From an uncultured Erysipelotrichaceae bacterium (GTDB lineage: Bacteria > Bacillota_I > Bacilli_A > RFN20 > CAG-826): a stretch of 37,199 bases of DNA. Where the stretch lies: positions 1 to 37,199 of the forward strand of contig CADBIO010000006.1 in the NCBI GenBank assembly GCA_902794835.1. The letters are read 5' to 3'. This document shows positions 8,501 to 25,428 of the stretch, one piece after another; position 1 is the first letter of the stretch, and each line of letters opens with the position of its first letter. Below the pieces are notes generated by a model. That model worked only from the letters and a program-made list of their open reading frames with translations, had not been told where the DNA came from and did not search any database. A program made the position numbers and the translations under genes.

Positions 8501-10453
8501 ATGTCTTATAAAGCTCTGTATTTAAAATATCGTCCTCAGACCTTTGAGGAAGTCGCAGGCCAACAGGTTATCGTAAGAACGTTGAAAAACGCTCTTGCCA
8601 ACGATAAGCTGGCTCACGCCTATTTATTTGCCGGCCCTCGTGGCACTGGCAAAACCACGATGGCACGGCTTTTGGCGAAAGCCTTGGATTGTGATGACGG
8701 CGTTGGCCATCAATGCAATCATTGTTCCAATTGTGAAGCAATTGCTGATGGATCGCATCCTGACGTGATTGAAATTGACGCCGCTTCAAACAATGGCGTC
8801 GATCAAGTTCGTGAATTGATCGAGAAAGTCAACTACGCCCCAATCAAAGGACGCTTTAAGGTCTATATCATCGATGAAGTCCATATGATGACAGATGCCG
8901 CTTTCAACGCCCTTTTGAAAACCATCGAAGAACCGCCAGAGAGGGTCATCTTCATCCTTTGCACCACCGAGCCTTATAAGGTCTTACCAACCATCCTCTC
9001 CCGTTGCCAAAGATTTGATTTTGGTAAAATCCCCGAAGAAGAAATGGAAACGAAACTGGTTTCCGTGTTGGAAAAAGAGAATGCGACTTTTGATAAAAAA
9101 GGTTTGCGCCTTATCATGAAACTCGCCGATGGCGGAATGCGTGATGCATTGTCCATTTTGGATCAAATCCTCGCTTATTCGGGAACCACTCTTAGAGAGG
9201 AAGATGTCCTGGCTATTTATGGATTGGCTTCTGATGCGGAAAAGGTCGACTTATTAATCTCCATGAGAAAAGGTGACGTTTCCCGAGTCGTTGGCAAATC
9301 TGAAGCCTATCTGGCAGGCGGAATTGATATTCGACGTTTAATCAGCGAATTGATTACTTTCTTAAAAGATTTGCTTGTTTTTGAGAAAACCAAAGACCCA
9401 TCTTTGATGGATGAGCTCTCCGAAGAAGACGCAAGAGAATTGTCCAAATGGATCTCACCCAAAGACAGCAACCAGATGCTTCTAGAATTAATCAACGCCC
9501 AAAATGATTTCAAAAATGTTTCAGACGTGCGTTCGTTATTTGAATTGACCTTGTTACGCATCGCCTCAAAACAAGAAACGGATAGCGAGCCAAAACCAAT
9601 CCCAGAAAAGGTCGCCCCGCAGCCAAGACCGATCCCTGTCTTCAAGAAAGAAACAAAGCCAACGGCCACGGATACCAGACCTGAGCCAATCGTTGAAGAA
9701 ACAAAGTCAGCCGTCGAAAATCCAAAGCCAGTGCTTAAGGAGGAAAAACCACTTGTCGAAGAGATTAAGCCTGTCATTCAAGAGGCACAAATTTCCGAAA
9801 CGACGGCAAATGGCGTTCCTCCTTCTTGGATGTTCGAGGAAGACAAGCCTTTGGAAGAAGGACAAGCCTTTGCAACGGAACCCGCTCAACAAACTCTCTT
9901 TGTCGAAGAAAATAAAACCGTAGAAACCCTCAAAGCGCCCGAAACAAAGCCAAGTGAAAGGCAAAAGCCGGCAGAAAAGGCAAAAACGGTAGAGCCGGCT
10001 AAACCGATTGACACCTCTGGAATCGTAAGGCCAAATATCGCTACCCAAGGCGTTACCTTCAACATCGAAGACGAACAATTAATTAACATCATGGTCTTGG
10101 CTAGCAAAAAGGAAAGGCAAGAATTGGTTGCCAACTGGAAACGTCTCGAACCATTGAGACTGGATGTGAAATTCAGCGCATTGGCCAATCTCTTGTTCGA
10201 AGGAAAACCATACGCATTATGCGGTGAAGCGTTGATCCTTTCTTACCGTTTCCAAGCGAAAGCGGAGAAAGCCAATATCGTCGCCAATCAAGAGCCACTT
10301 CAAGAGTTGGTTGCCGCTCTTTTGGGAAGAAAGGTCTTCATTTATGCGATCTATCCAGAAGTCCAGACAAGAATTCAAAAAGATTTCTTCAGCAGGCAAC
10401 AATTAAGCCAGTTGCCAAGAAAAGACGAAATCCAACTCGTGTTGCCAAAATAA
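8501..10453 (+). CDS. dnaX: DNA polymerase III subunits gamma/tau
   Basis: This is the clamp-loader ATPase that loads the sliding clamp and organises the replisome. The AAA+ domain has Walker A GPRGTGKT at residues 45-52 and a zinc-binding set C64, C72, C75, C78. Walker B is in VYIIDEVHMM (121-130) and the sensor-1 SRC motif is in ILSRCQRFDF. A Pro/Lys/Glu-rich linker of roughly 140 residues (about 365-505) separates the clamp-loader core from the C-terminal tau domain (about 510-650). No E. coli-like frameshift signal is evident at the core/linker boundary, so only the long form is predicted. It heads an operon with ybaB, recR, tmk, holB, ricT and rsmI, close to the Bacillus order. Confidence 0.96.
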   Translation: MSYKALYLKYRPQTFEEVAGQQVIVRTLKNALANDKLAHAYLFAGPRGTGKTTMARLLAKALDCDDGVGHQCNHCSNCEAIADGSHPDVIEIDAASNNGVDQVRELIEKVNYAPIKGRFKVYIIDEVHMMTDAAFNALLKTIEEPPERVIFILCTTEPYKVLPTILSRCQRFDFGKIPEEEMETKLVSVLEKENATFDKKGLRLIMKLADGGMRDALSILDQILAYSGTTLREEDVLAIYGLASDAEKVDLLISMRKGDVSRVVGKSEAYLAGGIDIRRLISELITFLKDLLVFEKTKDPSLMDELSEEDARELSKWISPKDSNQMLLELINAQNDFKNVSDVRSLFELTLLRIASKQETDSEPKPIPEKVAPQPRPIPVFKKETKPTATDTRPEPIVEETKSAVENPKPVLKEEKPLVEEIKPVIQEAQISETTANGVPPSWMFEEDKPLEEGQAFATEPAQQTLFVEENKTVETLKAPETKPSERQKPAEKAKTVEPAKPIDTSGIVRPNIATQGVTFNIEDEQLINIMVLASKKERQELVANWKRLEPLRLDVKFSALANLLFEGKPYALCGEALILSYRFQAKAEKANIVANQEPLQELVAALLGRKVFIYAIYPEVQTRIQKDFFSRQQLSQLPRKDEIQLVLPK

Positions 10454-10471
10454 TCATTAAAGGAGAATCAT

Positions 10472-10774
10472 ATGAATCAAATGCAACAAATGTTGATGCA
10501 AGCACAAAAAATGCAGCGTCAACTCCAAAAAGCTCATGCCGAGCTTGAACAAAAAGAATTCACCGTCGAGAAGGCGGGCTTAGTCACCGTGGTCTTGACG
10601 GGGGATAAAAAAGTTAAATCCATCGCCATTGACAAAGACGCTTTAAATCCTGATGACGCTGAAATGGTTGAAGAAACAATTGTCTCTGCAATCAATGAAG
10701 CGATTGAAAAAATCACAGCAGAAGCCAATGCGATTGACGAAGAAATCACAGGGCGTAGCGGCGGATTGTATTAA
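10472..10774 (+). CDS. ybaB: YbaB/EbfC-family nucleoid-associated protein
   Basis: This 100-residue DNA-binding protein forms dimers with a central beta-sheet and helical arms and is thought to act in nucleoid organisation or recombination alongside RecR. The N-terminus MNQMQQMLMQAQKMQRQLQ and the core GLVTVVLTGDKKVKSIAID are characteristic. A strong AAGGAG ribosome binding site lies 18 nt after dnaX. Its stop shares one base with the recR start (TAATG). The dnaX-ybaB-recR order is among the most conserved in bacteria and makes the assignment secure; its exact function is not settled even in model species. Confidence 0.93.
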   Translation: MNQMQQMLMQAQKMQRQLQKAHAELEQKEFTVEKAGLVTVVLTGDKKVKSIAIDKDALNPDDAEMVEETIVSAINEAIEKITAEANAIDEEITGRSGGLY

Positions 10775-11370
10775 TGAAAGAACTGAATTCCATTCAAGCC
10801 TTGATTGACTCTTTCAGCAAACTTCCAGGGGTTGGTGTAAAGAGCGCGGAACGCATGGCTTATGCTGTGCTTGCTTTTAAGCAGGAAGACCGGGACGAAT
10901 TTGTCAAAGCCATGAATGACGTTTCACAAAAAATTCATCGTTGCCCAACTTGTGGCCTTTATACGGAAAACCCAGGAGAATGCGAAATATGCATCGACGA
11001 GGGACGTGACCATAAAATCATCTGTGTCGTCAGCGATGTCAAAGACGCTTTAGCCATCGAAAAGATGAATTCTTTCCATGGTTTATATCACGTCCTGGGG
11101 GGTGTTATCAGCGCCACAAAAGGCATCGGAGCAGAAGGCTTAGCAATCGATGGTTTGCTAAAACGTGTCAAGGAAAATGGAATCGAGGAAGTCATTTTAG
11201 CCACCAACCCAACATTAGATGGCGAGACGACAGCTTTATTTGTCGCCAAACTCCTTGAAGGAAAGGCCAATGTCACACGCTTAGGATATGGACTTCCGAT
11301 GGGCTCGTCACTTGATTATGCAGATTCTTTAACCCTTTCTAAGGCGTTTGAAGGAAGAAAGAAGATTTAA
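10774..11370 (+). CDS. recR: Recombination mediator RecR
   Basis: RecR works with RecO and RecF to load RecA on SSB-coated single-stranded gaps. The 198-residue protein shows the N-terminal helix-hairpin-helix (LPGVGVKSAERMAY, residues 17-30). A four-cysteine zinc finger follows at C57, C60, C70 and C73. The Toprim region includes IICVVSDVKDALAIE and the EVILATNPTLDGETTA segment. Length is standard. Its start is fused to the ybaB stop (TAATG) and tmk follows after 4 nt. Confidence 0.96.
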   Translation: MKELNSIQALIDSFSKLPGVGVKSAERMAYAVLAFKQEDRDEFVKAMNDVSQKIHRCPTCGLYTENPGECEICIDEGRDHKIICVVSDVKDALAIEKMNSFHGLYHVLGGVISATKGIGAEGLAIDGLLKRVKENGIEEVILATNPTLDGETTALFVAKLLEGKANVTRLGYGLPMGSSLDYADSLTLSKAFEGRKKI

Positions 11371-11374
11371 CATT

Positions 11375-11995
11375 ATGTTCATCACTTTTGAAGGCGGAGA
11401 AGGCTCCGGAAAAACCACGTGCATCAAGCGGATTGTCGAAATATTAGAAAAAGAAGGCAATCGCGTTGTTTTGACACGTGAGCCTGGGGGTACACCAATC
11501 TCAGAAGAAATCCGGAATGTCATTCTCGACAAGAAAAACACGGATATGGACCCTCGTACCGAGGCTCTTTTGTATGCCGCGGCGAGAAGACAGCACATCG
11601 TCCAAAAGATCCTTCCTTCCTTAAAAGAAGGGAAAATAGTGATCAGCGATCGTTTCCTCGATTCTTCTTTGGCTTATCAAGGCGGAGCCAGAGGATTGGG
11701 AATTGAGGAAATTTATCGCGTGAATCAATATGCGACCGAAGGGCTAGAACCTGACATCACCTTCTTCTTTGATATTGATCCCGAAGAGGGATTACGAAGG
11801 ATTGCCTCTAATGCCGGGCGCGAAGTCAATCGTCTTGATGTGGAAAAATTAGCTTTCCATCAGACGGTCCGAGGGGCATTCCAAGAACTTGCAAAACGTT
11901 TCCCAAAACGTTTCGTTGTTATTGATGCCGCCCAAAAACCAGATGACGTCTTTAACGCCGTCCTCAAAGAAATTCATCAGAGAATCAGAAAATGA
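11375..11995 (+). CDS. tmk: Thymidylate kinase
   Basis: Tmk phosphorylates dTMP to dTDP for DNA synthesis. The start chosen is the ATG at 11375-11377, giving 206 residues beginning MFITFEGGEGSGKTT with the P-loop at residues 7-15. An in-frame TTG at 11348 would overlap recR and add nine residues without family support. Other marks are the TREPGGTP loop, the DR(F/H) motif in SDRFLDSSLAYQGG and the lid segment around REVNRLD. It lies between recR and holB, as in Bacillus. Bacillus has small genes (yaaQ/darA, yaaR) between tmk and holB that are absent here: tmk overlaps holB directly as ATGA. Confidence 0.95.
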   Translation: MFITFEGGEGSGKTTCIKRIVEILEKEGNRVVLTREPGGTPISEEIRNVILDKKNTDMDPRTEALLYAAARRQHIVQKILPSLKEGKIVISDRFLDSSLAYQGGARGLGIEEIYRVNQYATEGLEPDITFFFDIDPEEGLRRIASNAGREVNRLDVEKLAFHQTVRGAFQELAKRFPKRFVVIDAAQKPDDVFNAVLKEIHQRIRK

Positions 11996-12999
11996 GATTC
12001 GGAGACTATTTAAAACAATATCAACCACTGGTCTATGAGACCTTCAAGAATTCGGTGGCTAACGAAAGAATCGCACACGCCTACCTTCTTTCCGGCGAAA
12101 GCGGGGTTCCTCTTTTAGAAACGGCTACGTTCCTGGCCAAATCTTTAATCTGCGACCATCCCAACCCTCTTGCTGACGAAGAATGTCGTTCTTGTCTTCG
12201 CATCGACCACCACACTTATTCGGACTTTATTGTTTTAGATGGCAAAGAAGGACAAATCAAAAAAGGCGACGTTCAGGAGATTGTCGGGGATTTCTCTAAA
12301 ACCCCCTTGGAAAGCAAAGGCGTGATGATTTATATCATCAATTTGGTTGAGAATATGAATCTCCAAGCAGTCAATTCCTTGCTGAAATTCCTAGAAGAAC
12401 CACCAGCAAAGACTTATGCCTTTTTGACCACCGAGAATGAAACACAGGTGTTGCCGACAATCGTCTCTCGTTGCGAAAAGCTTCGGATGATCCTGGTGCC
12501 TAAGGAAACGGTGATCGAAGATTCCCTCAAGCTCGATGTGAAAGAGGAGGACGCTGAGATTCTCTCCAATTTTTATAACAGCGCACTTCTTTTGAAAGAG
12601 CGTTCCGAAGAAGCGGAATATCTGGCGATGAAAACGTTATGGGTAGATGTGTTAAAAATCCTTTCTGCCGATTCTCGGGATATTGTTTTCCATTTTGAAA
12701 ACGTCGTCATCCCTGCTTTGGCGGGCAATAAAAAGAAAGGAACCTCATCCATTCAGAACACACGTTTCTTCCTAGACATGCTTTCGATGGCCTTTAAAGA
12801 TGCGATTGCCATCGAAGCAAAGCAGCCCGTCGCTTTAAAAACCTACGATGGTTTATTACAATCTTTCGCAGGGAGACTTCCTCATTTGGGAGAATCTCTG
12901 ACTGAGATTTTAAAAATCAGAAGCATCTTAAACACCAACATCAACTCCTCATTGGCTTTGATGCACCTCATTCTTTATATTACGGAGGACAAGCAATGA
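11992..12999 (+). CDS. holB: DNA polymerase III subunit delta'
   Basis: Delta' is the rigid stator subunit of the clamp loader, related to DnaX in fold. The 335-residue protein has the family segments ANERIAHAYLLSGESG and EEPPAKTYAFLTTENETQVLPTIVSRC (the SRC motif near residue 160). The P-loop position reads GESGVPLLET and lacks the GKT/S needed for ATP binding, as expected for a delta' that does not hydrolyse ATP. The zinc-binding loop keeps only three clear cysteines (C54, C65, C68). It overlaps tmk and ricT by 4 nt each (ATGA). Context in the dnaX operon decides the call. Confidence 0.9.
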   Translation: MRFGDYLKQYQPLVYETFKNSVANERIAHAYLLSGESGVPLLETATFLAKSLICDHPNPLADEECRSCLRIDHHTYSDFIVLDGKEGQIKKGDVQEIVGDFSKTPLESKGVMIYIINLVENMNLQAVNSLLKFLEEPPAKTYAFLTTENETQVLPTIVSRCEKLRMILVPKETVIEDSLKLDVKEEDAEILSNFYNSALLLKERSEEAEYLAMKTLWVDVLKILSADSRDIVFHFENVVIPALAGNKKKGTSSIQNTRFFLDMLSMAFKDAIAIEAKQPVALKTYDGLLQSFAGRLPHLGESLTEILKIRSILNTNINSSLALMHLILYITEDKQ

Positions 13000-14027
13000 A
13001 TACGAATCATTATGCCTATTTCGTCGCAATTCATTTCGAAGGCAGCGACAAATCTTATTATTTCGGGACCAACGACAATACCTTGCAGCCAAATGACTTT
13101 GTCATCGTCGATACCGTTTCTGGGTTCGAATTGGCCATCGTTTCCAAAACTCCAGAAAGCACCGATACTTACCAATCCGATTTGGAATTGAAGCCCGTCA
13201 TCCGTCGTGCCAGCGCCGAAGATATCGAAGATTACGAATTCGGGAAGAAACAAGCCAAAGTGGCCATGAAAATCGCAGACCGGGAAGCAAAAAATTTGAA
13301 TCTCGGCATGACTTTTGTGAATGCGAATTATACTTTGGATGGAACCAAGGTCACTTTAAGTTATACGGCCGAAGGGCGTGTTGATTTCCGAGAATTGCTC
13401 CGCATCCTCGCCTCTCAGCTCAAATGCCGTATCGAATTGCATCAGATTGCCCCTCGTGACAAGGCTAAAATGGTTGGCGGTATGGGTATCTGCGGGTTGC
13501 CTTTGTGCTGCTCTACCTTCTTAAACGCCTTCGATGGAATCTCAATCTCTCGCGCCAAAAACCAAATGTTGACTTTAAACATTCCAAAACTATCCGGTGC
13601 TTGTGGGCGTTTGATGTGCTGTCTCCTTTATGAAGACGACCTTTATACTGAAGCAAAGAAGGATTTCCCGAAGATCGGAACGTCAATTCACACCTCCGAA
13701 GGCGATTATACGGTCGCTTCTTTCAATGTGATTTCCCGATCCGTCAAACTCGTTTCGGAAACCGACGTCCAATATGTGACGATTGAAGATTTCAAAATGA
13801 TGAGTAAGCCAGGATATCGAAAGCCTCAGCCAGCCCCGCAGCCAACCCCATCGAAAATCGATGTCAAGGTGAATCAGCAGTCAAAAGAAAACAACGACAA
13901 TAACCGCGACAAGGCAAACAACAAGCCAAAACAAAGCGACAATCACAACAACGATCGCAATTTCCGTCACAGACGCAACCGCTTCCGTGGCAAAGGCGAC
14001 AGGAACAACAACAAAAACAATGCTTAA
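12996..14027 (+). CDS. ricT: PSP1-domain protein RicT (YaaT)
   Basis: The 343-residue protein belongs to the PSP1/YaaT family. In Bacillus RicT joins RicA and RicF in an iron-sulfur complex that assists RNase Y-dependent mRNA maturation and affects sporulation, competence and biofilm formation. The PSP1 core contains the conserved cysteines C166, C171, C172, C203, C208 and C209 (in GICGLPLCCS and GACGRLMCC). Residues about 272-343 form a low-complexity Pro/Gln then Asn/Lys/Arg-rich tail that is probably disordered and possibly RNA-binding. It follows holB with an ATGA overlap and a GGAGG site. In Bacillus the next genes are yabA and yabB; here rsmI follows directly. Confidence 0.9.
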   Translation: MNTNHYAYFVAIHFEGSDKSYYFGTNDNTLQPNDFVIVDTVSGFELAIVSKTPESTDTYQSDLELKPVIRRASAEDIEDYEFGKKQAKVAMKIADREAKNLNLGMTFVNANYTLDGTKVTLSYTAEGRVDFRELLRILASQLKCRIELHQIAPRDKAKMVGGMGICGLPLCCSTFLNAFDGISISRAKNQMLTLNIPKLSGACGRLMCCLLYEDDLYTEAKKDFPKIGTSIHTSEGDYTVASFNVISRSVKLVSETDVQYVTIEDFKMMSKPGYRKPQPAPQPTPSKIDVKVNQQSKENNDNNRDKANNKPKQSDNHNNDRNFRHRRNRFRGKGDRNNNKNNA

Positions 14028-14877
14028 AAGAGAATTGAATTTTCAAGGCACGTCCCCTCTCCTTTACCTGATTGCCACGCCAATTGGGAATCTAGAGGAA
14101 TTTTCTCCACGCGCCTTGCACGTCCTACGAGAAATGGATTATGTTGCTTGCGAAGATACCAGAAATTCCGGTCTTCTTCTCAAACGTTTTAGTTTGGATC
14201 TTCCGCTGATATCCTGCCACGAACACAACGAAGAAAAAGCTTCCGAACGAATCCTTTCTTTGCTTTCTGAAGGGAAGAAAGTTGCTTATATGTCCGACGC
14301 AGGATACCCAATTATCTCTGACCCTGGCCAACGTTTGGCAAGACGTGTCATTGAAGCAGGATATAAAGTTTCTGTGGTTAACGGACCAAATGCCGGTCTT
14401 TGCGCTTTAGTGGGATCTGGCATTCCCAGCGAGCATTTCTATTTTTATGGTTTTTTAGATAGCAAACCTTCAAGTAGAAGAAAACAATTAGAATCCTTGA
14501 AAGATTTTCATGACACCATCATTTTCTACGAATCCCCTCACCGCATTCATGACACTCTAATTGACATGGCATCCATCCTTGGAAAAGACCGTCGCGCTTC
14601 TTTATCAAGAGAACTCACCAAGACCCACGAAGAATATATTCGCGCCACTTTAGAAGAACTCTCCCAACTGGAAGAGGAGACTTTGATCGGCGAAATGGTT
14701 CTTGTCGTGGAAGGGGCGAAAAAAGGAATCAACGAAACAACGGACGAAGAAATCGTGAATTACCTCAAGGAAACTCTGGGAACAATGAAATCCAAAGAGG
14801 CGATTAAAGAAGTCGCCCAACGTTATCATTTGCCTAAGAATCGGGTCTATGACCTTTATCTTAAAAACTTTAAATAA
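14020..14877 (+). CDS. rsmI: 16S rRNA (cytidine(1402)-2'-O)-methyltransferase
   Basis: RsmI 2'-O-methylates C1402 in the decoding centre of 16S rRNA. The SAM-dependent tetrapyrrole-methylase fold is recognised from LYLIATPIGNLEEFSPRA near the N-terminus, ACEDTRNSGLLLKRF, SDAGYPIISDPG and FYESPHRI. The ATG at 14020-14022 overlaps ricT by 8 nt and gives 285 residues. An in-frame GTG at 13987 is possible but less like the family. The ribosome binding site is weak and distant for either start, which suggests coupling to ricT translation. It ends the operon; only 12 nt separate its stop from the convergent YfhO gene, and no clear terminator is visible there. Confidence 0.92.
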   Translation: MLKRELNFQGTSPLLYLIATPIGNLEEFSPRALHVLREMDYVACEDTRNSGLLLKRFSLDLPLISCHEHNEEKASERILSLLSEGKKVAYMSDAGYPIISDPGQRLARRVIEAGYKVSVVNGPNAGLCALVGSGIPSEHFYFYGFLDSKPSSRRKQLESLKDFHDTIIFYESPHRIHDTLIDMASILGKDRRASLSRELTKTHEEYIRATLEELSQLEEETLIGEMVLVVEGAKKGINETTDEEIVNYLKETLGTMKSKEAIKEVAQRYHLPKNRVYDLYLKNFK

Positions 14878-14889
14878 AGCCTCAATCTC

Positions 14890-17800
14890 TCAGGCGGAAA
14901 GTTCAAGGGATTCCTTCTTATTTTTTCGGACGTGATAAATGAAACGTCCCGCCGTATAACCCGCTAACCCCAAGACAGCGATCGAAGCAAGAACCGCGCC
15001 TAATTTTAAGTACGGAGTTTCGTATTTCATGACATACGTAGCTTCGTTTTCTGGGGCGACGAAACCAACAAAACCACCATCTAATTTATAAGTGTTGCAA
15101 TTCTTAATCGTGCCATCTTTTAAAGTGGCTGTGACTTTCCAGCCTGCATCATACCCCAACGAGGTGACGATCAGCTTTTTGGAATCAAAATTGCTTTCAA
15201 AGGTGACTTTGTTTGTGCCATAAACAACATTTTGCAAAGCATAAGAGGAAGATTGATATTTGTGGTAGAAAGATTCCACATCTTTACGGTTGGCCATCGA
15301 AACTCTCACGTTATTGGGAATTAAAGCGGCGGCGTTATCGACCCCAGATCCGCGGAAATCGGAAGGCTTGGCGTTGAGGCAAATATATTTCACTTTGCCT
15401 TTGGCATAGAAGCCAAACACCTCGGCCGCTGAAGCTCCGCTAATACGACGACTGCTATAAGTCGTCAAAGTGTTGTAATCATAAGTAAGGATCTGATTTT
15501 CATGTAAAACCCCTTCTTCGTCCAGATAATCACCAATCATATAAATGCGGGTTTTGAACGAAGCCGACGAGCTGATGTTGTACATCAAAGAGAAATAGGC
15601 CCCACTAGAATCATCAGGGTTAAAGTAGGTTTCCCCGGAAGATGGCGAATAAACGACCGTTTCATAGTCGGGGACATAACTATTCCCACTAGTTCGGATG
15701 GTTTCATAATGATCCAAGAAATAGGCAGGGCCGTAGGTCTTAGATTCGGTTGCCTTAAAACCGATAAAATCGGTGTCGGGATGACGATAAATCGACTTTT
15801 TGATCGAAATCGGTTTCAACAAATTAGAGGATTCTGGGGCGGACTGGATGGTAAGGGGCAGCTTTTCTTTTTCCAAACGATCCACGTCTTTGTCTAAAAC
15901 AATTGCCCCAGAGGTGTAGATTTCTTCGTTGCGGTTAATTTCATTGAATATCTTTTGGGCATTATTTTCGGCACAATAGAAATCATCTTTATAGGTGGAG
16001 TCAGGGTCGCTATTGGCAGCATAAATAGAATCAACGGCATGGCCAAAACTGTTCTTGTTGACCAAAGAGGAACGATAATAACGTAACGGGGTGTCTGAAT
16101 TGCCAAGAATCAATTCTGAATCCCAAGGTACGTTATCGCTATTTAGATATTTACCGATCGAAGGGTCTTGGTTGCTGTTTTCCCAATTCCCATAGCCCTC
16201 ACGCTTGATGCCGTAATATTTGATATTTAAGGCAGTGTCTGCCCCTAACCTCTTATTGCCATAATAAGCAGACCAAGATTTGCTGTAATAGGTCTGATCG
16301 TAGGCTGTATGGCTATATTCGTGGCGATTCATATGAGAATATAAGGCCAGTTGATTCACATCATAATTAAATAAGGAATGGAAATTAGAGGTGCCATTGA
16401 AATCAAACACTTCTTGGGCGTTCTTTTCTGGATGTCCCTCCACATAGGCACGATAATAAGAATTCCCGTCAAAGGAATTGATTTCTTTGAAAGCATCGGT
16501 CACAGAATTTCGATAATTGATTCCCCCATTCCAACCTGTGTAAGACCAAGTTCCCATATAGGCGAAAGACATATTTCCCCAAAGAATGGTTTCTGCCATG
16601 ATGATTCCGCCTAGAACGCGAAGCAACCATTTTCTGTTCTTGATCAACAAAACGATCAAACCAACAGCTAAATCCATGCCAAGTTGGAAATAAACGATCC
16701 AAAGGGTGGAATGCCCTCTAACCACAGAAGGAACGCTATATTGACTTACCCAGTAACTAGTAAGGGCAACATCGAAAGTCTTGTCTTTGATGACCACAAG
16801 GCAAAGAATCCAAGTCAATATGGCAAGCGCCAATGAAGTGACAGCGCCAGAAATAGGAACCCAAATAGGCTCTTCTTTCAACCGATCCAATTCTTGGCAG
16901 GCATAATAAATGATGATGGGTACTAAAACAATATACCATCTGCCATATCCATCTCCTGTAAAGGCATAGAAGAAATAATAGGCAAAGTCGGTGAAAACGA
17001 GATAGCCAATCAAAACAAAAGCAATCAAATGGGAGATTTTCTTTCTTCGGATGGAAGAAACGAAAGCGACCCAAAACATCACGACCATTGGGGTATAACA
17101 GAATAAGGACGCCACCCAAGCGTCATATTGGATGCCTCCACTGGAATTCATCCCTGAGGCGATAGGCAAGGCTAAATATCCGTAAGTGGGATAAAAGAAG
17201 CCAATAAGGCCCTGTAACTCTCTCGCCGGATGACGGCCCACCAATTCAAAGAGGCGGCTAAACAAAGTGGGGATGTCCAACGTTTTAATCGACGTTTTTA
17301 AAGAATTAAAATACGCCATGCCGATAGAGACCGTCCTGCCAGACAAAGAAGATTCTCTAAGGCTCGGGAATAAACTCCAGGAACATAACATGATTCCTGC
17401 GGCAAAACCCATGACCCCCAGCCCTATCACGGCCAAATTATCTTTCCAATTTCGGTCTTTGATGGTCCAGAAATAACGCCATATGGCATAAATCACGCCA
17501 AAGATACAAACAACAACGAGGAAAAAGAAAGAGATGATCCCTAAAAGGAATAGGCCGATGGATAGTGTCAGCACTTTTTTCTCTTTGATGACTTTTTCAA
17601 TCCCTAACAAAACCAACGGGACGGTGCAGCACATAGAGACGACCGAAGGGAAACCGACCATAAAATTGAGATACCCGTTAAAAGCAAAGGCTAATCCGCC
17701 GACTCGAGAACTGCCCTCACTTACCCCCATATATTTAAGGTAGGCACGTGTTGTAAAAGCGCCAGCGACGCCTTTTAAAAAAGTAGCAATCACAAAAGTA

Positions 17801-18213
17801 TGAGGAATCCAAGCTCGGGGGAAAAGATAGCAAACAAACAAAAATGGATCGAAGAGACCATAATAAGAATTAGAGCCGATATTGTCGGTTCCTAAATAGG
17901 TTTGAGGAGCGTAAAGCTCAAAGATCCCCGTGGAGAAAAAACGATGCCACGTATCCCAAAAAGAATAGGTGAAAGTAACATATTGGCCCGTGTAATCCGT
18001 CCATGGGTAAAATTGGGTGAAATGGTTATTCACCAACGAATAGAAACACCATAGGAAACCCAACAAGAAGACTAAGCAGCCGTAATAAAAAAGAGAACGA
18101 ACGTCAAAAAGGAAAGGAAGGTGTCTTTGGAACCATTCTTTAACGTTTGGCCTTTCTTTTCTCAATTCACCCAGTGAAGTGTGCTTATTTTCGCTTATTT
18201 CTTCTGCTGCCAT
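14890..18213 (-). CDS. YfhO-family polytopic membrane protein
   Basis: This is a very large integral membrane protein (1107 residues from the ATG at 18211-18213). Many hydrophobic segments occupy the first half, starting near SLFYYGCLVFLLGFLWCFYS. The second half is a long mostly extracytoplasmic region, and one last transmembrane helix near the C-terminus is followed by a basic tail. The early YPWTDYTGQY and GTDNIGSNSYYG segments match the YfhO family, which has a GT-C glycosyltransferase-like fold. Bacillus YfhO is implicated in glycosylating lipoteichoic acid; the substrate here is unknown. The start overlaps the 3' end of the RluA gene by 29 nt. An in-frame TTG at 18252 would lengthen the N-terminus but has less support. 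Confidence 0.82.
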   Translation of the reverse strand: MAAEEISENKHTSLGELRKERPNVKEWFQRHLPFLFDVRSLFYYGCLVFLLGFLWCFYSLVNNHFTQFYPWTDYTGQYVTFTYSFWDTWHRFFSTGIFELYAPQTYLGTDNIGSNSYYGLFDPFLFVCYLFPRAWIPHTFVIATFLKGVAGAFTTRAYLKYMGVSEGSSRVGGLAFAFNGYLNFMVGFPSVVSMCCTVPLVLLGIEKVIKEKKVLTLSIGLFLLGIISFFFLVVVCIFGVIYAIWRYFWTIKDRNWKDNLAVIGLGVMGFAAGIMLCSWSLFPSLRESSLSGRTVSIGMAYFNSLKTSIKTLDIPTLFSRLFELVGRHPARELQGLIGFFYPTYGYLALPIASGMNSSGGIQYDAWVASLFCYTPMVVMFWVAFVSSIRRKKISHLIAFVLIGYLVFTDFAYYFFYAFTGDGYGRWYIVLVPIIIYYACQELDRLKEEPIWVPISGAVTSLALAILTWILCLVVIKDKTFDVALTSYWVSQYSVPSVVRGHSTLWIVYFQLGMDLAVGLIVLLIKNRKWLLRVLGGIIMAETILWGNMSFAYMGTWSYTGWNGGINYRNSVTDAFKEINSFDGNSYYRAYVEGHPEKNAQEVFDFNGTSNFHSLFNYDVNQLALYSHMNRHEYSHTAYDQTYYSKSWSAYYGNKRLGADTALNIKYYGIKREGYGNWENSNQDPSIGKYLNSDNVPWDSELILGNSDTPLRYYRSSLVNKNSFGHAVDSIYAANSDPDSTYKDDFYCAENNAQKIFNEINRNEEIYTSGAIVLDKDVDRLEKEKLPLTIQSAPESSNLLKPISIKKSIYRHPDTDFIGFKATESKTYGPAYFLDHYETIRTSGNSYVPDYETVVYSPSSGETYFNPDDSSGAYFSLMYNISSSASFKTRIYMIGDYLDEEGVLHENQILTYDYNTLTTYSSRRISGASAAEVFGFYAKGKVKYICLNAKPSDFRGSGVDNAAALIPNNVRVSMANRKDVESFYHKYQSSSYALQNVVYGTNKVTFESNFDSKKLIVTSLGYDAGWKVTATLKDGTIKNCNTYKLDGGFVGFVAPENEATYVMKYETPYLKLGAVLASIAVLGLAGYTAGRFIYHVRKNKKESLELSA

Positions 18214-19225
18214 TAGATTTTCTCTTTTGCTTCTTTGCCTGATTTTTACCAAGATGGCGCTTCTTCTTTTCTTTCTCCGACTTAAGGGGTTCCAGCCCAG
18301 AAGAGGCCATCAATTTCTTAAAACTTGGCGGGATAGGGCAATTCAAACGATATTCTTTGCCGTTTAATGGGTTGGTAAAATCCAATTCGTAGGCATGGAG
18401 ACCCAAACGTTTTAAAGGATTGGATGGATCGCCATAACGATCATCCCCGACAATGAAATATCCTTGATTTCCCAATTGGACACGAATCTGATTTTTACGA
18501 CCCGTGGAGATGTTGACATCCAATAAAGCATATTTCTTATTGGAAGTGATTTTCCGATAATCGGTGATGCAGAGCTTCCCTTTTTTGCGATTTTTGGTGA
18601 CATAGACATTGAACGTCACCTCATCAATTCCAAGATAATCTTCTAAATGGCCCCTTTCGGGGATGTCATTCGGCTCAACAATCGCGTAATAGCCACGTTT
18701 CTTGACAATGTCCTGCCAATGATTTTGCAAGGCTTCACGGACTTCCCATTTTTTGGCAAAAATCAAAACGCCAGAGGTATCCTCATCCAATCGGTGGACG
18801 ACAAAAATTCTCGAGTTTCGATCTTTTTGGGTCATATAATCGCTAATCAAGCGATAAGCGGTTCTCCCTTTTTCCAAATCGGAAGCGACCGAAAGCAATC
18901 CGCTTGGCTTATTGATGGCGATGATGTCTTCGTCTTCATAAATGATCGGAAGGTCTTTTCTTTGGTGTTTGGCAATCCGATTGTAGGAAACGATGACTTC
19001 ATCATCAGGATAAAGTTTGTAAAGGAAAAGGGATACCGGTGCGCCTCCGACGGCAACTTGATGATTGGCGATGATACGCGTGATATTCTTTTGCGATTGG
19101 CCGGGGATTTTTTCTTTTAGGAAATCAAGCAATGTCGTTTCGTGATGGACGAGGAAAACCTTGGTCTTCTTTAAGTCAATTAGACCCTTTTTAGAACGAT
19201 GTGCTTTTTGATCGTTTTTATTCAT
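18185..19225 (-). CDS. RluA-family pseudouridine synthase (RluD-like)
   Basis: The 346-residue protein converts uridine to pseudouridine in large-subunit rRNA, judging from the family. An S4-like RNA-binding region covers about residues 25-85. The catalytic motif HRLDEDTSG carries the essential Asp at D147, and the YYAIVEP, GRKNQIRVQL and GLHAYELDF segments follow in the usual order. The last 35 residues are extremely basic (Lys/Arg-rich), an extra RNA-contacting tail not needed for the fold. Which uridines are modified cannot be decided here; it may correspond to RluD or to a Bacillus YlyB/YtzG-type paralogue. It lies 12 nt after the patatin gene with an AAGGAA site. Confidence 0.88.
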   Translation of the reverse strand: MNKNDQKAHRSKKGLIDLKKTKVFLVHHETTLLDFLKEKIPGQSQKNITRIIANHQVAVGGAPVSLFLYKLYPDDEVIVSYNRIAKHQRKDLPIIYEDEDIIAINKPSGLLSVASDLEKGRTAYRLISDYMTQKDRNSRIFVVHRLDEDTSGVLIFAKKWEVREALQNHWQDIVKKRGYYAIVEPNDIPERGHLEDYLGIDEVTFNVYVTKNRKKGKLCITDYRKITSNKKYALLDVNISTGRKNQIRVQLGNQGYFIVGDDRYGDPSNPLKRLGLHAYELDFTNPLNGKEYRLNCPIPPSFKKLMASSGLEPLKSEKEKKKRHLGKNQAKKQKRKSNGSRRNKRK

Positions 19226-19237
19226 AATGCTGTTTCC

Positions 19238-20092
19238 TTATTGGGCGAGGTATTCGCGTAATCCTTCAAGTTGGCGCTTAGTGTCTTCGCAAGCTTGCCT
19301 AAAAAGCTCGTCAAGTTTCTTTTTATCCTGCGTGGTGATTTTCACTTGCGGAGGAATGGAAGGGTAAAGCACGAAGATTCTGCCCTCGTCGGCAAGGCGG
19401 TCCATCAAATCCATTTGCTCATTGTAGTGTTTGTAGGAATTAAGAATGTCTTCGAGGAATTTTGGTTGGTGACGATATTGTCTGCGGCAAAGACGTTTCA
19501 TCAAACGTCCGGGGGCGCTTTTACGATACCCCTTCTCTCTCGTAACGATGATAACAATCTTGGAAATATTATCTTTTAATGCCTTTTCGAATGGCACAGA
19601 AGCATACACGCCCCCATCCAAATATCCTTTTCCTTCGATTTCCACAGGTTTAGAAAAAGGCGGCAATGAAGCACTGGATGCAAGTCCCAGCAGGAAGTTT
19701 GGGTCTTTTTTCGAGAAATAGGAAGTGTCGCGATCTTCGACGGAACAGGCAGCCGCATAGAATTCAGTCGGAGAATCCATGAAGTCGTCGTGTTTGAAAG
19801 GAAGCTTCGTCTTAGGCAAGTCCTCTAAAAGATATTTGAAATCAAAGATGGATCCCTTGGTGAAATAATTGTGGACTTTGATGAAACCTTTTGCAGAAGT
19901 TAGCTCATTGATGATTTTCTCAAGACGCTCTGGGTCTTTGGCAACGAAATCAATGCCAAGCAAGGCACCAGCACTCGTACCATAAACCTGGTCAAAAGAA
20001 AATCCATTTTCCACAAGGACTTTCAACGCCCCGGCGGCATAAGTCCCTCTTGCGCCGCCACCCTGAATGATCAATGCTGTCTTAGCCGCCAT
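19238..20092 (-). CDS. Patatin-like phospholipase / serine lipase
   Basis: The product is a patatin-fold acyl hydrolase of 284 residues from the preferred ATG (20090-20092), probably cytoplasmic or membrane-associated because no signal peptide is present. The oxyanion-hole motif GGGARG is at residues 11-16, the nucleophile Ser40 lies in GTSAG, and the catalytic Asp159 lies in YLDGG. It resembles the RssA/YchK branch of small bacterial patatins, whose substrates are generally unknown. An in-frame ATG three codons upstream (20101) lacks a suitably placed ribosome binding site, whereas the chosen one has AGGG 9 nt away. It overlaps the 3' end of the nucleotidase lipoprotein gene by 11 nt, so the two are co-translated. 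Confidence 0.88.
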   Translation of the reverse strand: MAAKTALIIQGGGARGTYAAGALKVLVENGFSFDQVYGTSAGALLGIDFVAKDPERLEKIINELTSAKGFIKVHNYFTKGSIFDFKYLLEDLPKTKLPFKHDDFMDSPTEFYAAACSVEDRDTSYFSKKDPNFLLGLASSASLPPFSKPVEIEGKGYLDGGVYASVPFEKALKDNISKIVIIVTREKGYRKSAPGRLMKRLCRRQYRHQPKFLEDILNSYKHYNEQMDLMDRLADEGRIFVLYPSIPPQVKITTQDKKKLDELFRQACEDTKRQLEGLREYLAQ

Positions 20093-21920
20093 ATTTCCCA
20101 TCCCTAAACGCCTGAGCGACGATGTCTTTTAAGAAATTAAGACCATCGCGACTCAGTTCTGTGAAATTGTATTGCCCAACGTATGGGCCATCGGAAAGAT
20201 AGGAAAGAGTGATCATTCTCACCTCGCTGGAAGAAGAAAGCGAAGAAACGTCAGTCATATAACCGACATAATTGTTAGAGAAAGTTTCGGCATTAGTTAA
20301 CGTCATCGCCACTTCTACGTTATCATTTTCAAAAGGCAGGGCCGCAAGCAAATCGCCGTAAGTGATATTTCCCGCAGGCAAAACCTGTCTCACGCCGCCA
20401 GAATTGATGACAGCGCCGACGAGAGGCCGCTCATCATCCTGATAACGTTCTGCGTAGAAATCATAAAGAGACTTAACGGCAAATTTCGCTAATTCATTTT
20501 TTGAAATTTGGCTGCTCGAGGTATAAATGACTTCATTTTTTACCACGGCAACCTCACTTTCATAATGGTCATAGACTTTTGTTGCCATTGGTTCGTCTTC
20601 CAAAGAAGTAATCGTTTCAATCGTGATGTCATTGTAGTGATCGAATATGAGTTTTCCCGTGTTGGGAGAAACTTTGAATTGAACATGTTGGATATCCGAT
20701 CCATTCGCATAAGTTTGAACGTGAGGAACATTGTTGTTGTCCAAAAAGGAATAACATCGATGAGTATGGCCTTCAAGAATCGCATCCACCCCAGAAAAAG
20801 TTAAGATATTAGAAGATGAAGGGTCGTCTCCTCCTGAATAATGCAAAGAGAGAACGACAATATCGCAATTTTCTTCCGAACGAAGGCGTTTCGCTTCGTC
20901 AGAGATTAATTTAGCAGCTTTACCCCAGTTGAAGACATATCCACCCCGTGTTGCTGTGGCGATGGAATTCTCAACCGGCCCAATCGCCCCAATCACGCCA
21001 ACATTGTATTTACCACGATGAACCACGCAAGAAGGTTTTGCCCAAGAAGGACGGTTCCCTTCTGCGTCAGTAATGTTGATGCCTAGGAATGGAAAATTGG
21101 CAAAGGAAGAATTTTCGGCAATCACGGAAGGGGTCCAGTCAAATTCATGGTTACCAATAGCCATGCTTTCGAAACCTGCGACATTCATCCAATCAACCAT
21201 CGACTTGCCACGGGTCAAATTGCTTTGCGCCCCTCCCTGCCACATATCGCCGCTAGATAAAACGATTGTGGTTTCTGGCGATTTTCTTTCTTGACCTACC
21301 AAAAAGGAAGAAAGTTTCTTGATTCCGGATTGGTATTTCTTTGATTCATAGATCATATCACTAGCCCCATGGGTGTCATTGATCGTATAAAAATCAATCA
21401 CGTCTGGGTCGGATTGGGGTTTCACATAATCATCACCAAAATGCAAAGTGATAGATTCAATCGCATATTCATAAAGAGGGGCATAAACACTGAAATATTG
21501 CCCCGAGTTTGGATAGACATAATCCGTGCCAGAAACCAATTCATAGGCCCCATTCATCGGGGAAGAAATCGGATAAGCGCTGCTCCTAGTCGCCAAAACG
21601 CCATAATCAACAGTCGTTGAAAAAATCACGTTGATGGAGACGATGCTTTTGGAAAATGGAGTTTTATTGGTGATGTATCCAGCTTTCTCAAAAATTACGA
21701 AGCCCTCCGCATTCTCTTTGGCGTTGGTGAAAGTGAAATCAATACCATCTTTATCAAGCGTGCCATTTGAGAAATCGATGATGTCCTCTTTTCCCAAAGT
21801 CAGTGAAGAAGGAACCACGATCGTTTGATTAGAGTCTTCGGAATCACTGGGGCTAATGGGACTGGAGCAGGAAACCAACAGAAGACTGCCAACAACAAAC
21901 ACGAAGGAAGATAATTTCAT
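20082..21920 (-). CDS. Lipoprotein bifunctional metallophosphatase / 5'-nucleotidase (UshA-like)
   Basis: This is a 612-residue lipoprotein with a signal peptide ending in the lipobox LLLVSC (lipidated Cys18), so it acts on the outer face of the membrane. Residues about 30-165 form an extra N-terminal beta-rich domain of unknown type. The metallophosphatase domain then carries the two-metal site: D182 and H184 (NDTHG), D225 (SGDMWQGG), N257-H258 (GNHEFDW), H360 and H385/H387 (EGHTHR). The C-terminal 5'-nucleotidase domain (about 460-605) shows NSGGVRQVLPAGNITYGDLLAALPF. Such enzymes dephosphorylate extracellular nucleotides so that nucleosides and phosphate can be taken up. No ribosome binding site precedes the ATG; a TATAAT ends 6 nt before it. 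Confidence 0.88.
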   Translation of the reverse strand: MKLSSFVFVVGSLLLVSCSSPISPSDSEDSNQTIVVPSSLTLGKEDIIDFSNGTLDKDGIDFTFTNAKENAEGFVIFEKAGYITNKTPFSKSIVSINVIFSTTVDYGVLATRSSAYPISSPMNGAYELVSGTDYVYPNSGQYFSVYAPLYEYAIESITLHFGDDYVKPQSDPDVIDFYTINDTHGASDMIYESKKYQSGIKKLSSFLVGQERKSPETTIVLSSGDMWQGGAQSNLTRGKSMVDWMNVAGFESMAIGNHEFDWTPSVIAENSSFANFPFLGINITDAEGNRPSWAKPSCVVHRGKYNVGVIGAIGPVENSIATATRGGYVFNWGKAAKLISDEAKRLRSEENCDIVVLSLHYSGGDDPSSSNILTFSGVDAILEGHTHRCYSFLDNNNVPHVQTYANGSDIQHVQFKVSPNTGKLIFDHYNDITIETITSLEDEPMATKVYDHYESEVAVVKNEVIYTSSSQISKNELAKFAVKSLYDFYAERYQDDERPLVGAVINSGGVRQVLPAGNITYGDLLAALPFENDNVEVAMTLTNAETFSNNYVGYMTDVSSLSSSSEVRMITLSYLSDGPYVGQYNFTELSRDGLNFLKDIVAQAFRDGKYGG

Positions 21921-21944: not shown

Positions 21945-22808
21945 TTACTTTTTAGAGTCGTCTAATTTGAGAAGCGGAGAATAGAGGTCGGTCCTGCGGT
22001 CGCGGAAGACCCCCCAAGAATAACGTTCTTCAGCAATTTTCTCCAAATCAAAAGAGACGACACGTACCCCTTCTTCTTCACGATTCATCTCTGCGACAAA
22101 ATTCCCATTTTGATCTGCGATAAAAGAGGAACCATAGAATTTCATCGACGACTGTTTGGCCTTTTCCACCCCTACACGATTTGACGCTAGAAGAGGCATG
22201 ATGTTGGCTGCGGCATGGCCTTTCATCGTGTTTTGCCAATGGTCTTTAGAATCCTGTGGCAAGATCGGTTCTGAACCGATGGCCGTTGGGAAAAGCAAGA
22301 CCTCTGCTCCTTTGATGGCCAAGATTCTGGCGGTCTCTGGGAACCATTGATCCCAGCAAACGCCAACGCCAATCCGACCGATTTTAGTATCAAAGACCAT
22401 AAAGCCCGTATCCCCTGGCGTGAAATAGAATTTCTCCTCGTAACATTCGCCAGTCGGAATATGTGATTTACGATAAATCCCAAGGATTTTTCCGTCCGCG
22501 TTGATCATCGCCAGGGAATTGAAGAAGCAGTTGCCGCTGCGTTCAAAGAAGGAAATCGGCAAGACAAGTTTTAATTCTTTGGCGAGTGACTGGAAATGTC
22601 GAAGAGTTTTCGAATTTTCCACTTCTTCAGCTAATTTGAAGTTCTCATAATCTTCGATTTGGCAGAAATAATGGCCTTCCCATAGTTCTGGCAAAAGAAC
22701 CAAATCGGCCCCTTCTTGTTTGGCTTTGCGAATATATTGATCCGCTTTCGCAAGATTTTCTTCGTAAACGTCCGACATTGAAAATTGGGTGATTGCTAAT
22801 TTGACCAT
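21945..22808 (-). CDS. aguB: N-carbamoylputrescine amidohydrolase
   Basis: AguB is a nitrilase-superfamily amidase that hydrolyses N-carbamoylputrescine to putrescine, ammonia and CO2. The 287-residue product starts MVKLAITQFSMS from the ATG at 22806-22808, preceded by a strong AAGGAGG site. An upstream extension to 22877 is rejected because it lies inside the upstream gene. The Glu-Lys-Cys catalytic triad is E41 (LLPELWEG), K114 (YRKSHIP) and C151 (GVGVCWDQWFPE). Segments such as HIPTGECYEEKFYFTPGD and RDRRTDLYSPLL fit the AguB branch rather than beta-ureidopropionase. The gene starts 1 nt after the stop of the decarboxylase-deiminase fusion, whose deiminase half makes its substrate, which makes the functional call firm. 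Confidence 0.92.
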   Translation of the reverse strand: MVKLAITQFSMSDVYEENLAKADQYIRKAKQEGADLVLLPELWEGHYFCQIEDYENFKLAEEVENSKTLRHFQSLAKELKLVLPISFFERSGNCFFNSLAMINADGKILGIYRKSHIPTGECYEEKFYFTPGDTGFMVFDTKIGRIGVGVCWDQWFPETARILAIKGAEVLLFPTAIGSEPILPQDSKDHWQNTMKGHAAANIMPLLASNRVGVEKAKQSSMKFYGSSFIADQNGNFVAEMNREEEGVRVVSFDLEKIAEERYSWGVFRDRRTDLYSPLLKLDDSKK

Positions 22809-22809
22809 T

Positions 22810-25428
22810 TTATTTGCCCTCCTTTGGAAGTTGCATGGTAATGCAATGAATGTTTCCACCGCCGAGAAGAATCTCATAGGTGTTGATTTGATGAATTTCT
22901 TTGTCTGGATAAAGTTGTTTCATCACTTTGTAAGCTTTTTGATCTTCAGGGACCCCGAAAGCGGGCATTATGATGAAATCTTTCCCTTGGTAATAATTCA
23001 CATAAGAAGCCGCTAAACGTCTTCCGCCTTGCCGAACATCCAGCGTGTTTGCCGTATTGATCAAGGAAACAGCCGTCTCATCGTCCATATATAACGGCTT
23101 AGGAAGAGGCATCTTATGGATAATCAGTTTTTCTCCTCTGGCATCCGTGGCTTCTCGTAAGGCTTTTAACGTTTGTTTGCAATAACGATATTGAGGATCG
23201 CTTTTATCCTCCGTCCAAGCCATCACGACCTCGCCGGGTTTGACAAACGAAACCATGTTGTCGATATGTTCATTGGTTTCATCTTGATAAATTCCGTGGG
23301 GAACCCAAATGACTTTCTCCACAGAAAGGAATTCATGCAGAATCTCCTCAATCTCTTCTTTCCGATATTCAGGATTTCTTCCTTTGGAAAGGAGACAGGC
23401 TTCCGTGGTGATTAAAGTCCCTTGCCCATCAATGGCAATTGAACCCCCTTCTAAAACGAAAGAAGGCAAATAATACGAAAGCAGCTTCAGTTTTTTCGAT
23501 ACTACTTCTCCAAGGCGATCATCATCTTGGTAATCCGAATAAAGGCCATCTACCTCACCGCCCCAGGCATTGAAACGGAAATCAACGGTTCTGATTTTCT
23601 GCCCGTTGGTCATGAATAATGGCATATTGTCTCTTGCCCAAGCGTCGTTATAAAGGAGTTTCCAGATGGTGACGTTGGGAATGTTTTCCAAAACGGAGGC
23701 GATCTTTTTCCCCATCATCGGATGAACCCCAACAATCACAGGCTCGTGCTTAGCGATTGCCTTGATGACTTCAAGATAGTTCTCTTGCCCTGGCTTGGCT
23801 TTTTCTCGCCAGGTATCCAACCGGTATGGCATTAAAATGAAAGTCGCTTGATGCTCTTCTCCTTCAAAAGGAAAGCGAAAACCATCATTCAATGGGGTCG
23901 TGACTTTGTTTTCGTAATAATCGTTCAACCGTTTTTCGTATAAATTGAATTTTCTCCATCGCTCGGTGTCGATCACTTCAAACACTCCCTGATAGGCAGA
24001 TTGAAGCTTGGTGTGTGAGGCTTGGGAAGCGAGCAATTCCTTGACTTGCTGGACCAATTCTTTGGACCACACTTCTCCAGGGACAATCAACGGAATGCCT
24101 GGAGGATACATCATAACTTCTTCCTTGGAAACCTCACCGACGCATTCTTCAATGGGAAGTAATTTTCCTGGGGCGTTATAAGAGATTCTTGGGCGGACTA
24201 ATTGATAAGGGAAGCCAGATTCAAAATGGGTATAACGCCTTGGCTGGTTGCGGTGATAATGGTCTTTCGAAATGGCGCGTAAGGCACGAACCAATTGATC
24301 AACGTGTTTCTTTGTGGTGCCGATGGCAAAAATGGCGAGGACCTCATTTGGCTCCGCTAATTCCATTTGGACGTTATATTTTTCTTTTAGCAGGTGATAA
24401 AGCTGAAAGCCATCAATATCAAGATGATCCAAGCCAATCACCAGCTTTGTCTCATCATAATCGTAGGCCCCGTGTGCCAAAAAATGTTGTCTGCCTTCAT
24501 TCACAAATCCTTTAATGTGGCCAATCTTTTCACGGGCATAATCCGCTAATTCATAGGTTTTATTCATAGCGGTGAGCCCTTCTGGAGAAGCCATAAAAGA
24601 ACGGGCGGCATCAAGAGAAGCAATCAAAATTCCCGAAGGCGAAGTGGTATTTAAGATATTTAATGTTCGCTGAACGTTTTGGCGGCTGAAAAATTTTGAT
24701 TTCAACAAAAGAACGGAACTTTGTGTCAAAGAACCCACGGTTTTATGAAACGAGGCGGCGGACATATCGGCACCTGCTTCCATCGCCGACATCGGAGAGC
24801 GTTTGGAATGGAAATAATAATGGGCTCCATGAGCCTCATCGACAAGCACAGCCATTTTATGAGCGTGGGCAAATTCGACTAATTCTTTCAGCGCCGTCAC
24901 TGCCCCGAAATAAGTTGGGTTAATCACAAAAATCGCTTTTGCCGAAGGGTTTTTAATGATCGTTTTCTTCCACTGTTCTAAAGATGGTTGGTTAGCAATT
25001 CCAAGATCCCCGTCGATCTCTGGCATCACGTAAACCGGAACCGCACCCGAAAGAACGAGGGCATTGACTACGGATTTATGCATATTGCGAGGCAAAATGA
25101 TTTTTTCATTGGCCTTCACCGCAGTCATAATCATGGCCTCAATGCCAACGCTGGTCCCATTAACCAAATAAAAGGCCTCATCGGCATCGCAAGCCTCCGC
25201 CAAATAGCGGGAAGATTCATAGACAACCCCCTGAGGATGACTCAGGCTATCCATGCCGATTGGTGAATTCACATCACATCGATAAAGAGCATGACCGAAT
25301 AATTTCGTCGCTGCGTTCGTGATATTCCCCATATGGTGTCCTGGTACGTCGAAAGGAGCGACATCTTCCGAAACATACTCTTTGAGGGCGTCGACATACG
25401 GCGTCTTCGATTGATCTAGTTTAGCCAT
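22810..25428 (-). CDS. Fused arginine decarboxylase - agmatine deiminase
   Basis: One 872-residue polypeptide joins two complete enzymes. Residues 1 to about 485 form a fold-type I PLP decarboxylase of the short Bacillus SpeA type, with VDEAHGAH (D197), the PLP lysine K229 in SFHKT and the C-terminal domain with YPPGIPLIVPGE (441-452). Residues about 511-868 form a full agmatine deiminase starting DGFRFPFEGEEHQATFIL. Its catalytic set is D600 (WARDNMP), H721 and D723 (EHIDN) and C862 (GGGNIHC), spaced like characterised AguA enzymes. The linker (about 485-510) is a short helical-looking stretch. Together they would turn arginine into agmatine and then N-carbamoylputrescine. Arginine rather than lysine or ornithine is inferred from the fused deiminase. 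No frameshift or internal stop is present. No ribosome binding site is evident. Confidence 0.92.
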   Translation of the reverse strand: MAKLDQSKTPYVDALKEYVSEDVAPFDVPGHHMGNITNAATKLFGHALYRCDVNSPIGMDSLSHPQGVVYESSRYLAEACDADEAFYLVNGTSVGIEAMIMTAVKANEKIILPRNMHKSVVNALVLSGAVPVYVMPEIDGDLGIANQPSLEQWKKTIIKNPSAKAIFVINPTYFGAVTALKELVEFAHAHKMAVLVDEAHGAHYYFHSKRSPMSAMEAGADMSAASFHKTVGSLTQSSVLLLKSKFFSRQNVQRTLNILNTTSPSGILIASLDAARSFMASPEGLTAMNKTYELADYAREKIGHIKGFVNEGRQHFLAHGAYDYDETKLVIGLDHLDIDGFQLYHLLKEKYNVQMELAEPNEVLAIFAIGTTKKHVDQLVRALRAISKDHYHRNQPRRYTHFESGFPYQLVRPRISYNAPGKLLPIEECVGEVSKEEVMMYPPGIPLIVPGEVWSKELVQQVKELLASQASHTKLQSAYQGVFEVIDTERWRKFNLYEKRLNDYYENKVTTPLNDGFRFPFEGEEHQATFILMPYRLDTWREKAKPGQENYLEVIKAIAKHEPVIVGVHPMMGKKIASVLENIPNVTIWKLLYNDAWARDNMPLFMTNGQKIRTVDFRFNAWGGEVDGLYSDYQDDDRLGEVVSKKLKLLSYYLPSFVLEGGSIAIDGQGTLITTEACLLSKGRNPEYRKEEIEEILHEFLSVEKVIWVPHGIYQDETNEHIDNMVSFVKPGEVVMAWTEDKSDPQYRYCKQTLKALREATDARGEKLIIHKMPLPKPLYMDDETAVSLINTANTLDVRQGGRRLAASYVNYYQGKDFIIMPAFGVPEDQKAYKVMKQLYPDKEIHQINTYEILLGGGNIHCITMQLPKEGK

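What the first reader, a model, noticed from the sequence alone, without database searches (positions are those of the whole stretch)
22810..25428. Single-polypeptide fusion of arginine decarboxylase and agmatine deiminase
Seen: one uninterrupted 872-residue frame contains a complete SpeA-type decarboxylase (PLP lysine K229, D197, C-terminal domain to about 485). It is followed by a complete agmatine deiminase (D600, H721, D723, C862). Known: in described organisms these are separate enzymes, often in separate operons. Inference: the fusion would hand agmatine directly from one active site to the next and prevent its release. The D600-H721-C862 spacing agrees with characterised AguA, so both halves are probably active. 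I am not aware of a published fusion of this kind.
Basis: partly seen in the sequence, partly recalled or inferred. Interest (0 to 1): 0.82.

Follow-up and report, generated by a model that had tools for sequence, protein, structure and literature searches.

The report
Fused arginine decarboxylase and agmatine deiminase
A gut-type bacterium makes one protein that joins the first two enzymes of the arginine-to-putrescine pathway; the same joined gene is kept in about 70 related species, so it is a real evolved two-in-one enzyme made of known parts.

Summary
Window 22810-25428 (-) is one open frame of 872 aa. Residues ~3-500 are an ancestral-form (short, aspartate-aminotransferase-fold) Orn/Lys/Arg decarboxylase; residues ~508-872 are a complete agmatine deiminase above the curated TIGR03380 cut-off. 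All checked catalytic residues are present and invariant in 54 fused proteins. It is not an assembly error: I count about 70 species-level genomes with the uninterrupted fusion (one a single-contig genome), both halves and the joint are under purifying selection, and aguB directly follows in every fused locus whose flank was read. Relatives, including cultured Anaeroplasma bactoclasticum, have speA-aguA-aguB as three overlapping genes, so the fusion most likely arose from that operon, with no spacer: the decarboxylase's own tail helix runs straight into the AguA N terminus. Best explanation: a bifunctional enzyme turning imported arginine into N-carbamoylputrescine, which AguB turns into putrescine. 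No other putrescine route was found in the 92% complete genome. Substrate specificity and channelling are inferred, not shown. The closest published relative is the Fusobacterium ornithine decarboxylase fused to an arginase-like domain. I found no report of this fusion in the open-access papers searched.

The parts
22810..25428 (-). 872-aa fused decarboxylase-agmatine deiminase gene (speA-aguA fusion)
   Evidence: single open frame; about 70 homologous fused frames
23959..25428 (-). residues 1-490: ancestral-form AAT-fold Orn/Lys/Arg decarboxylase domain; D197 (24838-24840), H228 (24745-24747), PLP lysine K229 (24742-24744)
   Evidence: Pfam PF01276 + PF03711; alignment to 2X3L, LdcC and others; VIA-align Z about 29-42 to family structures over residues 3-500; invariant residues
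23908..23958 (-). residues 491-507: joint, a helix starting at invariant W491; it corresponds to the native C-terminal tail of stand-alone operonic homologues, so no spacer was added
   Evidence: tail alignment and operon junctions; ungapped in 54 fused proteins, W491 invariant; helix 492-507 in the AlphaFold2 model
22813..23907 (-). residues 508-872: complete agmatine deiminase domain; D600 (23629-23631), E660 (23449-23451), H721 (23266-23268), D723 (23260-23262), C862 (22843-22845)
   Evidence: TIGR03380 above cut-off; alignment to 2JER; Z 58, rmsd 1.3 A over 361 residues to Arabidopsis AguA 3H7C
21945..22808 (-). aguB, N-carbamoylputrescine amidase, 287 aa from ATG at 22808; Shine-Dalgarno AAAGGAGG overlaps the end of the fusion gene
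   Evidence: TIGR03381 424.7 bits over cut-off 410; junction DNA; adjacent in every fused locus with flank read

Best explanation
The gene encodes a bifunctional enzyme. Its N-terminal PLP-dependent decarboxylase domain converts L-arginine to agmatine plus CO2. Its C-terminal pentein domain deiminates agmatine to N-carbamoylputrescine plus ammonia through a Cys862/His721/Asp723 centre. The next, closely spaced gene aguB hydrolyses N-carbamoylputrescine to putrescine. The fusion arose from the operon speA-aguA-aguB, in which speA and aguA already overlapped, by loss of the speA stop and a frame change; the decarboxylase's own tail helix became the joint. Shown by sequence: one frame, two complete domains, catalytic residues, conservation, selection, operon context. 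Inferred: arginine as substrate, simultaneous activity of both halves, main benefit fixed 1:1 stoichiometry and proximity of the two sites, putrescine as end product.
For: Domain assignments and curated cut-offs. Catalytic residue mapping and invariance in 54 fused proteins. About 70 species-level genomes with the intact fused frame over seven genera of the own family plus other families, including G104, a one-contig genome. dN/dS 0.02-0.13 in both halves and the joint for nine close pairs. aguB adjacent in all fused loci with flank. Unfused operons with overlapping genes in relatives including A. bactoclasticum. The decarboxylase tree puts the operonic separate genes next to the fused ones. 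The model has mean pLDDT 93 with both folds complete. The genome has one copy of each half and no detected arginase/agmatinase, AR-fold decarboxylase or ADI.
Against: No biochemical data. The decarboxylase subfamily differs in its N-terminal motifs (VPGHHMGN, DVNxPxG) from Bacillus SpeA and the Fusobacterium ODC, and it occurs without AguA in sister genus g26 and other families, so arginine specificity is not secured by homology alone. NCBIfam has no above-cut-off decarboxylase equivalog for it.
Confidence: 0.85

Rival explanations
1. Assembly or sequencing error joined two neighbouring genes.
For: The window comes from an assembly of 96 contigs, and separate overlapping genes exist in relatives.
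Against: The same uninterrupted frame with the same joint occurs in about 70 separately assembled species genomes, at about 48-68% identity; dN/dS is low across the joint; G104 is a single-contig genome.
Confidence: 0.01
2. The fusion is real but only one half is active: as in the Fusobacterium ODC-arginase fusion, one domain has become structural or regulatory.
For: Precedent: the arginase-like half of the F. nucleatum fusion lacks metal ligands (PMC8503589).
Against: All checked catalytic residues of both halves are invariant in 54 fused proteins, both halves are under similarly strong purifying selection, and no second copy of either enzyme was found in the genome.
Confidence: 0.05
3. The decarboxylase half acts mainly on another amino acid (ornithine or lysine), and AguA/AguB handle agmatine from elsewhere.
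For: Ancestral-form family members include ODC and LDC, and C. botulinum has an aODC in a genome that also encodes AIH and NCPAH (PMC8503589). The subfamily also occurs without AguA.
Against: Physical fusion plus conserved operon with aguA and aguB would then be unexplained; no arginase or ADI gene was found, so ornithine would probably also have to be imported.
Confidence: 0.1
4. The fusion channels agmatine from one active site to the other so that little free agmatine is released (first reader's mechanism; an addition to the best explanation rather than an alternative).
For: Consecutive reactions; a short helical joint of fixed length.
Against: No tunnel or site-to-site path was tested; relative domain placement is uncertain (pTM 0.71); proximity alone often gives no channelling. 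Oligomeric state unknown; bacterial AIHs range from monomer to tetramer (PMC6447857).
Confidence: 0.15

Closest known systems
Fusobacterium nucleatum ancestral ODC-arginase/agmatinase-homologue fusion (WP_005898385, PMC8503589)
   Same: Same decarboxylase family, fused at its C terminus to a polyamine-pathway enzyme family; 783 aa; architecture confirmed here in a F. vincentii record.
   Different: Second domain is PF00491 (ureohydrolase), reported as probably inactive; decarboxylase is an ODC. Here the second domain is a pentein AguA with its catalytic set intact.
Separate speA-aguA-aguB operon (Anaeroplasma bactoclasticum and relatives)
   Same: Same three enzymes in the same order, closest relatives in sequence.
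   Different: Three genes that overlap in different frames instead of a fused first pair.
SpeD-SpeDC and other polyamine-enzyme fusions (PMC10407285)
   Same: Polyamine biosynthetic enzymes joined in one chain.
   Different: Different, non-homologous enzymes and steps.

Membership tests
Agmatine deiminase (AguA, TIGR03380) | Score above the curated equivalog cut-off | tested here: met
   428.3 bits against 381.8, residues 510-869
Agmatine deiminase (AguA, TIGR03380) | Pentein fold and Cys/His/Asp catalytic set | tested here: met
   Z 58.2 to 3H7C; D600/E660/H721/D723/C862 aligned to 2JER, invariant in 54
Agmatine deiminase (AguA, TIGR03380) | Hydrolyses agmatine to N-carbamoylputrescine | not testable with these tools
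   needs an assay
Ancestral-form AAT-fold Orn/Lys/Arg decarboxylase (SpeA-like) | PF01276 + PF03711, about 490 aa, no N-terminal receiver domain | tested here: met
   begins directly at OKR_DC_1, domain residues 3-500
Ancestral-form AAT-fold Orn/Lys/Arg decarboxylase (SpeA-like) | PLP lysine and Asp in SxHK and DEAHG motifs | tested here: met
   K229, H228, D197 aligned with 2X3L and others, invariant
Ancestral-form arginine decarboxylase (aADC) | Specificity for L-arginine | tested here: inconclusive
   context only: fused to AguA, beside AguB; no above-cut-off equivalog
Fusobacterium-type ODC-arginase fusion | C-terminal PF00491 domain | tested here: not met
   C-terminal domain is PF04371; no PF00491 match in the genome
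N-carbamoylputrescine amidase (AguB, TIGR03381), neighbour gene | Score above the curated cut-off | tested here: met
   424.7 bits against 410.25

The most novel reading that the evidence does not exclude
A new class of obligate bifunctional polyamine enzyme that retains agmatine between its two active sites, so that these probably arginine-importing bacteria make putrescine without releasing free agmatine, a signalling amine.
Probability: 0.13. Interest if true: 0.6.

Novelty: new variant of a known kind. Interest (0 to 1): 0.42.

Why it matters
It is a domain architecture for polyamine synthesis that I did not find described, widespread in an uncultured lineage of class Bacilli sampled largely from rumen. 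It comes with a preserved set of unfused operon relatives that shows how the fusion likely arose: overlapping genes to a single chain without a spacer. It offers a ready one-protein arginine-to-carbamoylputrescine catalyst and a clean test of what fusing consecutive enzymes buys. Annotation pipelines that name the protein by one half will miss the other.

Tried and rejected
Assembly error: rejected (see rivals). I first took the Anaeroplasma bactoclasticum locus (residues 3-867 matched) as a fused isolate; reading the frames showed three separate overlapping genes. One or two origins: the AguA tree puts the two f23 fusions outside a group of separate genes, but AU tests do not reject one origin for either half (p 0.48 and 0.44), and the joint has nearly the same length and position, so one origin is favoured and not proved. 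Internal start for a separate AguA: no in-frame ATG between residues 440 and 533, and no clear ribosome-binding site before the GTG/TTG codons near the joint. Fusion on plasmids: no record covers 80% of the query. Paper searches for an ADC-AguA fusion returned none describing it; subscription papers are not covered. The fold searches cannot show absence of other similar folds.

Full report
Observation. The minus-strand frame 22810-25428 is open from ATG to TAA for 872 codons. hmmscan finds OKR_DC_1 (9-373) and OKR_DC_1_C (421-472) followed by PAD_porph (518-868). NCBIfam calls the second half agmatine_aguA above its curated cut-off, while no decarboxylase equivalog is above cut-off for the first half. 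The next gene downstream, from ATG 22808, is aguB above cut-off; its ribosome-binding site overlaps the end of the fusion gene.

Residues. Alignment with 2JER places D600, E660, H721, D723 and C862 on D96, E157, H218, D220 and C357. A Cys/His/Asp triad is the described catalytic set of agmatine iminohydrolases (Cys366/His224/Asp226 in Medicago; PMC6447857). K229, H228 and D197 lie in the conserved SxHK and DEAHG motifs shared with 2X3L and, for the lysine, with LdcC. All are identical in 54 non-redundant fused proteins, as is W491 in the joint.

Distribution. The query finds one place in its own 1.39-Mb, 96-contig genome (92% complete). Surveys of family, order, class and phylum show the full-length single frame in 67 genomes of the own family (seven genera), one genome of a second family and two of a third, about 70 by my count of the listed rows; further partial copies appear to stop at contig ends. 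Named records are Bacilli/Bacillales/Erysipelotrichaceae-labelled MAGs, many from rumen, and one Acholeplasmataceae MAG. One fused genome is a single contig (G104). aguB follows in every fused locus whose flank was read.

Origin. In Anaeroplasma bactoclasticum ATCC 27112 and its family, and in a genus of a sister family, speA, aguA and aguB are three separate genes whose speA and aguA overlap. In two of them the speA end and aguA start share ATGATTAA, and the aguA ribosome-binding site lies inside speA. The fused joint aligns with the native tail of the stand-alone decarboxylases and then with the AguA N terminus, with no inserted spacer. In the decarboxylase tree, operonic separate genes and fused genes form a supported group, with the AguA-lacking g26 genes just outside. 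In the AguA tree the f23 fusions fall apart from the rest, but one origin is not rejected for either half. Close pairs have dN/dS 0.02-0.13 in both halves and the joint.

Structure. The AlphaFold2 model (85-row alignment) has mean pLDDT 93 with a helix at 492-507 joining the domains; pTM 0.71 leaves the relative placement unsure. Residues 508-872 match Arabidopsis AguA end to end (Z 58, 1.3 A, 361 residues), and residues 3-500 match family decarboxylases (Z about 29-42).

Mechanism. Most likely: arginine to agmatine to N-carbamoylputrescine on one chain, then putrescine by AguB. The genome shows no match to spermidine synthase, arginase/agmatinase, alanine-racemase-fold decarboxylases, arginine deiminase or argininosuccinate synthase. 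So arginine is probably imported, this operon is the only putrescine route found, and putrescine may be the end product; the genome is 92% complete, so each absence is provisional. Arginine specificity is an inference from context: the ancestral-form family contains ADC, ODC and LDC (PMC8503589), and this subfamily differs from Bacillus SpeA in its N-terminal motifs. Channelling is possible but untested.

Comparison. The nearest published architecture is the Fusobacterium ODC-arginase homologue fusion (PMC8503589; architecture checked). The present fusion uses an unrelated, apparently active second enzyme. Open-access literature searches found no report of it. Both parts are known families, so this is a new variant of a known kind.

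Noticed in passing
window 8501-14877: dnaX-ybaB-recR-tmk-holB-ricT-rsmI cluster. In many Firmicutes a speA/yaaO-type decarboxylase gene sits just upstream of tmk (PMC8503589); here there is none between recR and tmk.
   Followed up: partly
L078/L096 (G155): A genome of a second family carries the fused gene while its relatives have separate genes on different contigs; horizontal transfer or mis-binning.
   Followed up: no
L082, L083, L111, L112 (genus g26 of the own family): Stand-alone decarboxylase of the same subfamily with no AguA match in the genome; its substrate and role are unclear.
   Followed up: partly
window 18185-20101: Patatin-DUF6363 and an RluA-type pseudouridine synthase lie downstream of aguB; one or the other also follows aguB in several other fused loci, so the neighbourhood is partly conserved.
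   Followed up: partly
L086 (G009): Decarboxylase split into two overlapping frames, a possible decaying or frameshifted copy.
   Followed up: no
window 14890-18252: 1120-aa YfhO-type membrane protein with no NCBIfam match.
   Followed up: no
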